Origin: Patulibacter sp.
GTDB taxonomy: Bacteria; Actinomycetota; Thermoleophilia; Solirubrobacterales; Solirubrobacteraceae
Length of the DNA stretch: 64,000 bases
NCBI RefSeq assembly: GCF_030655195.1
Contig: NZ_JAURWA010000114.1
Location: 62,001-126,000 of the forward strand
Reading direction: 5' to 3'
Below, one piece after another: positions 59,236 to 63,151 of this stretch. A model generated the notes under the pieces. It did not search any database. It had not been told where the DNA came from and was given only the letters and a program-made list of their open reading frames with translations. Both the position numbers and the translations under genes were made by a program. Position 1 is the first letter of the stretch; every line of letters begins with the position of its first letter.

Positions 59236-59264
59236 TTGACACCCTGTCGCGACATGGGCAGATT
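59236..59264 (+). promoter_or_regulatory. Promoter of the large secreted repeat protein
   Basis: A perfect -35 TTGACA (59236-59241), a 17-bp spacer, then CAGATT (59259-59264). It predicts a leader of about 70 nt. This is the one consensus -35 noticed in the window, unlike the leaderless promoters. Confidence 0.5.
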
Positions 59265-59340
59265 GGTCCCCTCGAGGCCCTATCGCGTCCCCGGCGATGT
59301 GTGCAACGACCATCGACACATATCCGAGAGGGAGCACCGC

Positions 59341-62300
59341 GTGAAGACATCAGGACGGCGCACGGCCGGGGCGCTCGTCGCGACGGCGGCGTGCATGGGC
59401 ACGCTGGCGGTCGCGACACCAGCACAGGCGGGGCTGCTCAGCGGCCTGCTCGGCGGGACCAAGGCCCCGACGACCACCGCGACGACCGCACCGGCGACGA
59501 CGGCGAAGGCCGCCGACCCGTTGAGCCCGATCCTCGGGCTGCTCGGCGGGCAGAACGGCCTCGGCGGCGTCGTCCAGGGCGTGCTGTGCCCGGTGACGTC
59601 CGTCGTCGACGGACTCGTCAAGAACCCGGTGACCGGCGGTCTCTCGCCGATCACCTCGGGTCTGACGACGCTCGCCTGCAACGCGGGCGTCCTCGACTAC
59701 CGCTTCGAGACGAAGCTCCGGCGGGCCGACGGCACCCTGGTCTCGCGCTCCCAGGTCGCGCAGCTCGGCGTCCCGACCCCGCTGAACGTCGACGACGACC
59801 TCGCGCCCGACCTCGTCGGCACGATCACGATCGTCGGCCGCAACGCCGTCGGCCTGAAGGTCGAGCGCGCGAGCGGCGAGCGTTCCACGCTCCCCGTCCA
59901 GGTCGAGGCGATCGTCGGCGACCCGAAGGGCACGATCCTCGGTGGCCGGCGCATCGCGATCGGCTACGACGCCCGCGACGACCGCGCGCCCGGGACCTTC
60001 GTCGTCTCGACCCCCGCGGACGCCCTGCTCGCACCGAAGCCCACCGTCGAGGCGACGGTGACGCAGACGGCGCGTGGCGAGCGCGTCGCCGTGCTCGCCG
60101 GCGTGTTCTCCGGCACCGGCGCGCAGCGCGTCGACGCGACCCAGGCGCGCCTGGACTACCGGCAGGCCCCGGACGTCGCGGCGTTCACCGTCGGCCTCGG
60201 CGGCTCGACCGCCGTCCGCGCGACCACCAACCGTCCGGGCGGTCTCCTGACCGCGGACCTCTCGACCCCCGACCTGGACGCGCGCGCCGAGCTGCGGACG
60301 CTCCCGGCCACGCTCGACCTGGCGCTCGACGGGGACGGCTCCCGCGTCGCCTACGACGGCAACGGCACGTCGATCGGCCGGCTCATCGCCGACGTCCGGT
60401 CGAAGAAGCCCCTGCTCGGGGACGCCGACCGCCTCCGGGCCGACCTCGACGGCATGCCCGTGAAGGGCGCCATCGCGCTGCGGGCCCCCGAGACCACCCA
60501 GGGTGCGTTCGGCCTCTCGTCGGAGGGCGAGATCGACCGCATCGAGGTCCAGGCCGCGAACGGCGCCGGCGAGCTGCCGACCGTCCCCGGCGCGGCCACC
60601 GACGCCGGTGCGCTGGTCGACACGACGGACGGGCGCTTCCGCCTGGCCGCCCGCGTCTTCCGCCTGCGCTCGGTGTCCGTCGCGCCGTCGCCCGCCGCGG
60701 TCGACCTCCGCACCGGCGTCGCCCAGACCTTCCGGATCGACGCCCGCACGCCGGGCGCGCGGGCCGGCTCCGACCCCCTGCACCTGACGGCGCTGGTCCG
60801 CGACCTGCCGACGGCGCTGAAGATCGGCCTGCAGGACGGCGACACCCCGCGCCTCACCTACGCCGCCGACGCGCCGGTGTCCGAGCTCTCCGTCGAGGCC
60901 GAGGGCCTCGGCCTCGTCGAGGGCGCGGACCGGCTGAGGCTCGCGCTGCGCGACCTGGACGGCGACGGCGCGCTCGCGTTCCGCGCGCCGGAGGGCGTCG
61001 ACGACCGGATCGGCCTGACCACGGACGGCCTGACCATCGGCCGGCTCGACGTCGCCGCGACCGGCGGCGGGTTGGACTACCCCTCCGTGCCCGGCGGCGA
61101 CGACGCGGCCGGCGCCTTCGTCGACACCACGGGCGGCGCGTTCCGGCTCGCCGCCCGCATCCTGCGCCCCGAGTCGGTCACGCTCGGCACCTCGCCGGTG
61201 AGCCTCGCGCTGAAGACGGGCGTCGCGCAGCCCTTCCGGGTCGACGCGACGGTCCCGGGCTCCGGCGACGGCGCCGCCCCGGTCCACCTGCAGGCCGACA
61301 TCCTCGACCTGCCCGAGCGCCTGACGCTCGGGCTCGAGGACGGCGCCGACGGCACGCGCCTGCGCTACGCCGCCGACGCACCCGTCGAGACGATCGACGT
61401 CACCGGCACGGGCATCCCGCTCGTCGACGGCGCGGACAAGCTCCACGTCCGGCTCTCCGGCGTCGAGGGCGACGGCGCCATCGGCGTCCGGAGCGGCGAC
61501 GACGGCCGCATCGGCCTGACCGCCGACGGCGTCGCCGTGAAGACGGTCGAGGTCGAGGCCGCCGACGCGGGCTCGCCCTTCCCGTCCGTCCCCGGGCCGG
61601 CGGACGGCGCGGGGGCGTTCCTCGACACCACCGGCGGGGCGTTCCGTCTCGCCGCCCGCGTCTTCGAGCTGCGGTCGATCACCGTCGACCCCGACCCGAT
61701 CACGCTCGAGGCGACGACCGGCGTGGCGAAGCCCTTCCGGGTCGACGCGACGCTCGCCGCCGCCGCCGACGCACCGGCGGGCACGGCCCCGACCCACGTC
61801 GAGGCCCTGGTCGAGGACCTGCCGACGACGTTCAAGCTCGGCCTGGCCGACGCGGACGACGGCGGCTCCAAGCTCGCCTACCAGGCCTCCGAGCGCGTCT
61901 CGCGCCTGGAGGTCGAGGCCACCGGCGTGCCGATCCTCGAGGGCACCGACCGCATCGCGGCGGCCGTCCGCGACGTGCCGAAGGCGTTCGACCTGACGCT
62001 GCCCTCGCAGGAGGGCGACGTCGCCAGGCCGCTCGCGACGCTCGGCATCGGCGACGGCGAGGCCGCGATCGGCGAGCTCCGGCTGGCCGCCGGCGCCACC
62101 GACCTCCCCGCCACCGGCCTGCAGGCCGACGGGACGAACGACCCTGCGGTCGCCGACCGCTTCGAGTACCGCAGCGCGGACCCGGCGGCCATCGGCGTCG
62201 GCGTGCGGCTGACGGGCGTGAAGGGCCTGAACCTGGGGCTCGACCCGATCGCGATCCGGCTGGACCAGGACGAGACGCGGACGAAGCCCGTCGACCTGGT

Positions 62301-63087
62301 GGCGACGCTGCCCGGAGAGGCCGGCGCGCCGGCGGCCACGATCAACGGCCGGTTCTCGAAGACGTCCGCGTCGACGAGCATCGCCGCGGTCCTGCAGGAC
62401 GGACAGCCGACGCGGCTGACGTTCGGCAACGCACGGAACCTCGACCGGCTGACGCTGAACGCGACGAACCTCGGGTCGATCCCGAAGCTCGACCTCGCGC
62501 TCGACAACCTGCCGCGGACGCTGAACGTGTGCGTGGACTCCGCCGGCGGCTGCCGCCGTGCGAACCCCAACGCCCTGTCGGGCGGGACGGCGGCCGGGCT
62601 GAACCGCCCGTACGCCGCTCAGACGTCGATCGACCTCGACGACGCGGGGACGCAGCTCGCCGGACAGCGGACGACGCTGAACGCCTCGCTGCCGGTCGAC
62701 GGCAACGTGGTCAACGTCGAGAACCTGCGGTTCCGCAACCTCGGTCTGGACCTGGGGCAGAGCGGCACGTTCAAGTACGCGGGCCAGGACATCCCGCGGA
62801 TCTACCTGTTCGCGGACTCCCGCGGCCAGCCGTTCACGATCAACCGCATCCAGTACCCGGGCACGATCGAGTCCTTCAAGATCGGCACGGACGCGTCGCC
62901 GGCGACCGCGACCAACCGGATCGTCTGGCTCCGCGGCACGAAGGGGTTCCTCGGCGCCCAGTTCGACAACCTCCAGGCCGGGACCCTCAACTGCGGCGGT
63001 CAGCGCGAGCTGAGCGTCAAGGTGCTGGGCCTGAACATCAACATCCTGAACATCTTCGGTCAGCAGGTGCTGCCCGTCTGCAGCTGA
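59341..63087 (+). CDS. Large secreted protein with four tandem domains, function unknown
   Basis: 1248 aa from GTG 59341, with GGGAG 8 nt upstream. A signal peptide ends near residue 30 (TPAQAG). A Thr/Ala linker precedes a Cys-containing segment (CPVTSVVDGLVKNPVTGG). An unrecognised region spans about 115-310. About four repeats of about 168 aa then begin near residues 318, 481, 650 and 819. Each has a DLP(x)n-LGL-DG start (HLTALVRDLP, HLQADILDLP, HVEALVEDLP); three also show a linking segment FVDTTGGAFRLAARIL-like (about 421, 591, 758) followed by TGVAQPFRVDAT. A C-terminal region (about 925-1248) has four Cys and ends QQVLPVCS. Beta-rich, with no catalytic motif, no sortase signal and no TM anchor. 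Probably an extracellular structural or adhesive protein. Confidence 0.8.
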   Translation: MKTSGRRTAGALVATAACMGTLAVATPAQAGLLSGLLGGTKAPTTTATTAPATTAKAADPLSPILGLLGGQNGLGGVVQGVLCPVTSVVDGLVKNPVTGGLSPITSGLTTLACNAGVLDYRFETKLRRADGTLVSRSQVAQLGVPTPLNVDDDLAPDLVGTITIVGRNAVGLKVERASGERSTLPVQVEAIVGDPKGTILGGRRIAIGYDARDDRAPGTFVVSTPADALLAPKPTVEATVTQTARGERVAVLAGVFSGTGAQRVDATQARLDYRQAPDVAAFTVGLGGSTAVRATTNRPGGLLTADLSTPDLDARAELRTLPATLDLALDGDGSRVAYDGNGTSIGRLIADVRSKKPLLGDADRLRADLDGMPVKGAIALRAPETTQGAFGLSSEGEIDRIEVQAANGAGELPTVPGAATDAGALVDTTDGRFRLAARVFRLRSVSVAPSPAAVDLRTGVAQTFRIDARTPGARAGSDPLHLTALVRDLPTALKIGLQDGDTPRLTYAADAPVSELSVEAEGLGLVEGADRLRLALRDLDGDGALAFRAPEGVDDRIGLTTDGLTIGRLDVAATGGGLDYPSVPGGDDAAGAFVDTTGGAFRLAARILRPESVTLGTSPVSLALKTGVAQPFRVDATVPGSGDGAAPVHLQADILDLPERLTLGLEDGADGTRLRYAADAPVETIDVTGTGIPLVDGADKLHVRLSGVEGDGAIGVRSGDDGRIGLTADGVAVKTVEVEAADAGSPFPSVPGPADGAGAFLDTTGGAFRLAARVFELRSITVDPDPITLEATTGVAKPFRVDATLAAAADAPAGTAPTHVEALVEDLPTTFKLGLADADDGGSKLAYQASERVSRLEVEATGVPILEGTDRIAAAVRDVPKAFDLTLPSQEGDVARPLATLGIGDGEAAIGELRLAAGATDLPATGLQADGTNDPAVADRFEYRSADPAAIGVGVRLTGVKGLNLGLDPIAIRLDQDETRTKPVDLVATLPGEAGAPAATINGRFSKTSASTSIAAVLQDGQPTRLTFGNARNLDRLTLNATNLGSIPKLDLALDNLPRTLNVCVDSAGGCRRANPNALSGGTAAGLNRPYAAQTSIDLDDAGTQLAGQRTTLNASLPVDGNVVNVENLRFRNLGLDLGQSGTFKYAGQDIPRIYLFADSRGQPFTINRIQYPGTIESFKIGTDASPATATNRIVWLRGTKGFLGAQFDNLQAGTLNCGGQRELSVKVLGLNINILNIFGQQVLPVCS

Positions 63088-63117
63088 GGGGCGGCGGGCC
63101 CGCCCGCCACGCAGCCG

Positions 63118-63144
63118 CCCGCCCGGTCCACGGGACCGGGCGGG
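63118..63144 (+). terminator. First hairpin terminator after the repeat protein gene
   Basis: A perfect 12-bp stem CCCGCCCGGTCC with loop ACG, 31 nt after the stop. Confidence 0.65.
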
Positions 63145-63151
63145 TCACGAC

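What the first reader, a model, noticed from the sequence alone, without database searches (positions are those of the whole stretch)
59341..63087. 1248-residue secreted protein with four about 168-aa repeats and no recognised domain
Repeats begin near residues 318, 481, 650 and 819 with a shared DLP...LGL-DG start and a linking DTTGGAFRLAAR segment. The sequence is beta-rich with no enzyme motif and no wall anchor. It has a consensus TTGACA promoter unlike the rest of the window, which suggests strong or distinct expression. It may be an undescribed extracellular structural family.
Basis: partly seen in the sequence, partly recalled or inferred. Interest (0 to 1): 0.65.

Follow-up and report, generated by a model that had tools for sequence, protein, structure and literature searches.

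The report
Undescribed secreted beta-repeat protein family
This is a real gene for a large exported protein built from tandem beta-sheet repeats, one of a previously undescribed family that a few soil actinobacteria carry with very different repeat numbers, most likely an elongated part of the cell surface or surrounding matrix whose exact job is unknown.

Summary
Window 59341-63087 encodes a 1248-aa exported protein of a Patulibacter species. It has a Sec-type signal peptide, an N-terminal cap and four ~168-aa-spaced repeats (r1-r3 42-53% identical, r4 diverged). A partial fifth repeat and a Cys-bearing C-terminal cap follow. Pfam, NCBIfam, PDB-sequence, phage, plasmid and viral searches find nothing. 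Relatives occur patchily in Actinomycetota (9 of 399 genomes of the class, 5 of 396 sampled across the phylum) with about 2 to 13 full repeats. First and last repeats are position-specific and the middle ones expand. Each repeat is A-A'-B, where A and A' are an internal duplication. AlphaFold models two repeats confidently (pLDDT 91, pTM 0.85) as a long antiparallel beta meander with amphipathic strands and no significant solved match. The promoter hint gains support: CTTGACA-N17-CAGATTGG is conserved before the P. minatonensis ortholog and unique in both genomes. A strong hairpin follows the gene. Most likely it is a modular extracellular beta rod or ribbon with disulfide-bearing ends (inferred). 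A hydrophobic-ligand groove is a live rival.

The parts
59236..59264 (+). promoter-like element TTGACA-N17-CAGATT
   Evidence: Same sequence and same 17-nt spacer in P. minatonensis, at the same distance from the start codon, while the flank further upstream is unrelated. CTTGACA-N17-CAGATTGG is the only match (0-1 mismatch) in each of the two genomes.
59265..59340 (+). 5' leader, about 80% conserved with P. minatonensis by eye on the alignment, with AGAGGGAG ribosome-binding site at 59327-59334
   Evidence: Alignment. The leader has no significant RNA fold (z -0.6).
59341..63087 (+). gene for the 1248-aa secreted repeat protein
   Evidence: Codon-position identity with the ortholog is 76/81/65% for positions 1/2/3; dN 0.25, dS 0.49.
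59341..59430 (+). signal peptide aa 1-30 (ATPAQA|G), no lipobox
   Evidence: Sequence, aligned in relatives.
59431..59685 (+). Thr/Ala/Pro linker and hydrophobic Gly/Leu-rich segment with conserved Cys83 and Cys113 (aa 31-115)
   Evidence: Alignments; Cys census; modelled with low confidence.
59686..60285 (+). N-terminal beta cap, aa 116-315 (invariant LNVD; mostly GYDARxDRAP)
   Evidence: Alignment A1 of 12 relatives; beta strands in the full-length model.
60286..60753 (+). repeat 1 (aa 316-471), position-specific 'first' type
   Evidence: Profile E 3e-42; first repeats match first repeats in 16 of 20 proteins.
60790..61257 (+). repeat 2 (aa 484-639), A-A'-B
   Evidence: Profile; within the two-repeat AlphaFold model of aa 478-822.
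61294..61755 (+). repeat 3 (aa 652-805), A-A'-B
   Evidence: Profile; 53% identical to repeat 2; AlphaFold.
61804..62313 (+). repeat 4 (aa 822-991), position-specific 'last' type
   Evidence: Profile E 2e-31; last repeats match last repeats in 16 of 20 proteins.
62392..63084 (+). partial repeat and C-terminal cap (aa 1018-1248) with C1064-x6-C1071, C1218 and C1247
   Evidence: Alignment. Complete members keep the spaced Cys pair plus a near-terminal Cys, distant ones included, while repeats are nearly always Cys-free.
63117..63145 (+). 13-bp G+C hairpin, probable terminator before the FKBP gene
   Evidence: Minimum free energy -36.1 kcal/mol for the 56-nt stretch, z -3.9 against shuffles; no U-tract.

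Best explanation
The gene encodes an exported, modular extracellular protein. Shown by sequence: a signal peptide, a conserved N-terminal cap with a Cys pair, an array of about 155-residue A-A'-B beta repeats, and a C-terminal cap with four conserved Cys. Shown by prediction: two neighbouring repeats fold confidently as one well-defined array of short antiparallel strands, each with one hydrophobic and one polar face. Inferred: the chain forms a long rod or ribbon stapled by disulfides at the ends. Its length is set by the number of middle repeats (about 2 to 13 full repeats across the family). It is released or held non-covalently at the wall, where it acts as a structural, spacer or adhesive element of the surface or extracellular matrix. 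Transcription from its own conserved promoter and ending at a hairpin fits a stand-alone gene.
For: Signal peptide conserved in relatives and no lipobox, C-terminal membrane helix or C-terminal sortase motif. Cys only in the caps, conserved in pairs across the family. Repeat number varies from about 2 to 13 while first and last repeats are position-specific. Two-repeat model pLDDT 90.7, pTM 0.85, all beta. In the full-length model beta strands continue from about aa 118 to 1066. Strands are amphipathic: face difference 2.84 against 1.51 +/- 0.21 for shuffles. Only 1 Trp in 1248 residues and no enzyme domain. Best structural neighbours are long open meanders (OspA, CPAP G-box, ApoB, porins) at noise level. 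No conserved gene neighbours; own promoter footprint and 3' hairpin.
Against: No localisation, proteomic or phenotypic data exist here. The full-length model is mediocre (pLDDT 68.5, pTM 0.55) and the C-terminal cap is poorly modelled. No coordinates were available, so whether the sheet is open, rolled or a groove was not seen. The consistently hydrophobic face must be buried against something, which a simple single-layer rod does not explain. Distribution is patchy even within the genus, so it is dispensable.
Confidence: 0.5

Rival explanations
1. Hydrophobic-ligand binder: the amphipathic meander curls into a groove or belt whose inner face carries lipid or another hydrophobic compound outside the cell, working like apolipoprotein B or bridge-like lipid transfer proteins without being one of them.
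For: The modelled strands have one hydrophobic face. The top VIA-align hits include the bridge-like lipid transfer protein LPD-3 (Z 4.8, rmsd 5.7, 179 aligned) and ApoB100 (Z 7.2, rmsd 6.8, 186 aligned). Units of about 150 residues resemble RBG units in size (PMC7613979).
Against: These Z-scores tie with porins and OspA and are within the stated noise range. Foldseek gives no credible match. About 13 short strands per unit rather than 5 long ones plus a crossing loop. No sequence similarity to TamB, and no TamB in the three Patulibacter genomes searched, so no sign of the outer-membrane lipid bridge known from diderms.
Confidence: 0.22
2. Adhesin or polymer-binding protein: the caps, especially the variable C-terminal cap, bind a surface or polysaccharide and the repeats are a stalk.
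For: Large secreted repeat stalk with disulfide-bearing caps; one relative carries a marginal N-terminal FG-GAP-like region; multiple divergent paralogs in P. medicamentivorans.
Against: No known binding domain, almost no Trp, no wall anchor.
Confidence: 0.15
3. S-layer or major coat protein.
For: Exported; a conserved, genome-unique promoter-like element suggests dedicated expression.
Against: Absent from half of the Patulibacter genomes searched; size varies from under 800 to 2800 aa; no S-layer homology domain.
Confidence: 0.06

Closest known systems
Repeating beta-groove (RBG) / bridge-like lipid transfer proteins (VPS13, LPD-3) and bacterial AsmA/TamB proteins
   Same: Tandem beta units of about 150 residues, antiparallel meander, amphipathic strands with one hydrophobic face
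   Different: About 13 short strands per repeat instead of 5 plus a crossing loop; secreted with no membrane anchor; no detectable sequence relation to TamB; TamB absent from the three genomes searched
OspA single-layer beta-sheet and CPAP G-box (TCP10) domain
   Same: Long, open antiparallel beta meander among the nearest structural neighbours of the model
   Different: Similarity at noise level (Z about 5); no sequence relation found; here the strands have a clear hydrophobic face
Wall-anchored Gram-positive repeat adhesins
   Same: Signal peptide, large size, tandem extracellular beta repeats of variable number
   Different: No C-terminal LPxTG or membrane segment; repeats match no Ig-like, SRRP or other Pfam adhesin family

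Membership tests
Repeating beta-groove (RBG) superfamily | Unit of five-stranded meander plus a crossing loop, 150 residues or more (PMC7613979) | tested here: not met
   The two-repeat model shows about 13 strands of mostly 6-10 residues per ~168-residue period, grouped 4+4+5.
Repeating beta-groove (RBG) superfamily | Concave face hydrophobic, convex face hydrophilic | tested here: inconclusive
   Strands are amphipathic, but curvature could not be seen without coordinates.
AsmA/TamB family | Sequence similarity to TamB | tested here: not met
   hhalign probability 0.1% against E. coli TamB; no Pfam TamB or AsmA hit.
AsmA/TamB family | Inner-membrane anchor and envelope bridging | tested here: not met
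   Cleavable signal peptide and no other membrane-helix-like segment in the hydropathy scan.
OspA/CPAP-type single-layer sheets | Single-layer antiparallel meander fold | tested here: inconclusive
   OspA and CPAP rows at Z about 4 to 5.7, tied with porins.
Sortase-anchored surface proteins | C-terminal LPxTG plus hydrophobic helix and basic tail | tested here: not met
   Only LPATG at aa 921, internal; C-terminus is ...QQVLPVCS.
Any curated Pfam or NCBIfam family | Score above curated cut-off | tested here: not met
   No match for the window protein, for 22 repeat pairs or for 8 distant relatives, apart from sub-threshold noise and a sub-threshold FG-GAP hit outside the repeats.
S-layer proteins | Abundant two-dimensional lattice on the cell surface | not testable with these tools
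   Needs microscopy or proteomics.

The most novel reading that the evidence does not exclude
A secreted, length-variable amphipathic beta array that binds or conducts lipids or other hydrophobic molecules outside a bacterium with no sign of the TamB lipid-bridge machinery, i.e. [quoted passage not shown]
Probability: 0.12. Interest if true: 0.78.

Novelty: new variant of a known kind. Interest (0 to 1): 0.45.

Why it matters
It defines an unnamed family of large exported proteins in poorly studied actinobacteria. Repeat structure, caps and Cys signature are clear enough to build a family model and to test directly. A confident fold prediction with no significant solved match, plus a hydrophobic face on the strands, makes it a good target for a structure. 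If the hydrophobic face holds lipid, it would be an unexpected kind of extracellular lipid carrier.

Tried and rejected
Pfam, NCBIfam, PDB-sequence, plasmid, phage and viral-contig searches found no relative. The first genome-contig scan with the protein alone found nothing; the N-cap alignment then found five loci, all Solirubrobacterales. Gene neighbourhood gave no partner: no neighbour is clearly shared between species. RNA structure of the leader was not significant. Foldseek against PDB and BFVD was uninformative: the one hit with E below 0.001, teneurin, had TM under 0.1. A TamB relationship was tested and not found. The chance-promoter reading was rejected for the full spaced element, not for the hexamer alone. 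Literature searches found no description of this family, in an open-access library only. The two VIA searches list neither LptA nor MORN proteins in their top rows, which excludes nothing.

Full report
OBSERVATION. The ORF at 59341-63087 (+) starts with GTG and encodes 1248 aa. The frame is open further upstream, but the GTG has a ribosome-binding site, and the signal peptide that follows aligns with the P. minatonensis ortholog. A profile made from the repeats and iterated over relatives places four repeats at aa 316-471, 484-639, 652-805 and 822-991, with a partial fifth at 1018-1070. r1-r3 share 42-53% identity, r4 only 23-32%. Codon-position identity with the P. minatonensis ortholog (76/81/65%) shows coding constraint.

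ORGANISM AND RELATIVES. The nearest named relatives are Patulibacter minatonensis DSM 18081 and P. medicamentivorans I11; the other named relative is a Solirubrobacterales MAG. In 101 genomes of near relatives 9 carry the family. With a repeat profile it is 9 of 399 in the class and 5 of 396 across the phylum, including two further lineages with distant members. It is absent from 4 of 8 Patulibacter genomes, and P. medicamentivorans has several paralogs. No phage, plasmid or viral relatives were found.

ANATOMY. Signal peptide; Thr/Ala/Pro linker; hydrophobic segment with two conserved Cys; N-terminal cap (invariant LNVD, mostly GYDARxDRAP); repeats; C-terminal cap with a spaced Cys pair (CX6C here) and two more Cys, the last almost at the C-terminus. 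Complete members keep this C-terminal pattern, distant ones included, while the repeat region is nearly always Cys-free. Full-length repeat numbers run from about 2 to 13. First repeats match first repeats in 16 of 20 proteins, last match last in 16 of 20, and middle match middle in 66 of 70. So the ends of the array are specialised and the middle grows or shrinks. Inside each repeat the first and second ~40 residues are homologous (hhalign probability 96.7%, E 4e-10), giving A-A'-B. One distant relative (L081) appears to consist largely of A-like modules, on weak scores.

STRUCTURE. AlphaFold on two repeats with 22 rows gives pLDDT 90.7 and pTM 0.85, all short antiparallel strands grouped about 4+4+5 per repeat. 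The full mature protein gives pLDDT 68.5, pTM 0.55, continuous beta from about aa 118 to 1066, and a poorly modelled C-terminal cap. The strands are amphipathic: mean face difference 2.84 on the Kyte-Doolittle scale against 1.51 +/- 0.21 for within-strand shuffles, none of 2000 reaching it. Foldseek finds no credible match: nothing below E 0.001 for the two-repeat model, and for the full-length model one teneurin hit with TM under 0.1. The second-look aligner lists long meanders (LPD-3, ApoB100, OspA, CPAP G-box, VDAC, porins) at Z 4 to 7, within its noise range. A long beta meander is therefore well supported; open, rolled or grooved is undecided. The antiparallel pairing is inferred from the strand order, since only secondary structure and confidence were returned.

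EXPRESSION UNIT. The TTGACA hexamer alone is not informative. The full element CTTGACA-N17-CAGATTGG is conserved 104-106 nt before the start codon in P. minatonensis, the flank further upstream is not, and it is the only match in each of the two genomes. A 13-bp hairpin lies 30 nt after the stop codon (z -3.9), before the FKBP gene. No gene neighbours are clearly conserved. This fits a single-gene transcript.

FUNCTION. Best supported is a modular extracellular rod or ribbon whose length depends on repeat number, with disulfide-bearing ends (disulfides inferred from Cys pairs). The role in surface or matrix is inferred. The main rival is a hydrophobic groove or belt that holds lipid. It is favoured by the hydrophobic face of the strands. 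Against it stand the noise-level fold matches, the different strand count per unit from RBG proteins (PMC7613979), the lack of TamB similarity and the absence of TamB from three Patulibacter genomes.

VERDICT. Real, undescribed in every library searched, and clearly a family. The function is open, so interest is moderate, with an upside if the hydrophobic face turns out to be a ligand channel.

Noticed in passing
window 59236-59264: Promoter-like element TTGACA-N17-CAGATT conserved with the P. minatonensis ortholog; with flanking bases it is unique in both genomes, and the leader downstream is conserved too, though without a significant RNA fold.
   Followed up: yes
window 63117-63145: Perfect 13-bp G+C hairpin after the gene without a U-tract, a probable actinobacterial terminator.
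   Followed up: partly
window 63862 to beyond the window end: Another exported protein (325 aa, read to its stop in L031) with a signal peptide and a C-terminal part that looks like a CARDB-type beta domain by eye.
   Followed up: no
L080:7287-10046: A family member in another genus carries an N-terminal FG-GAP-like region before the family's N-terminal cap (sub-threshold Pfam hit).
   Followed up: partly
L036:6385-13028: Two family genes lie in tandem in P. medicamentivorans, which has several divergent paralogs.
   Followed up: partly
L081:5357-8560: Distant relative that seems to consist mainly of the ~50-aa A module, suggesting that A is the elementary unit.
   Followed up: partly
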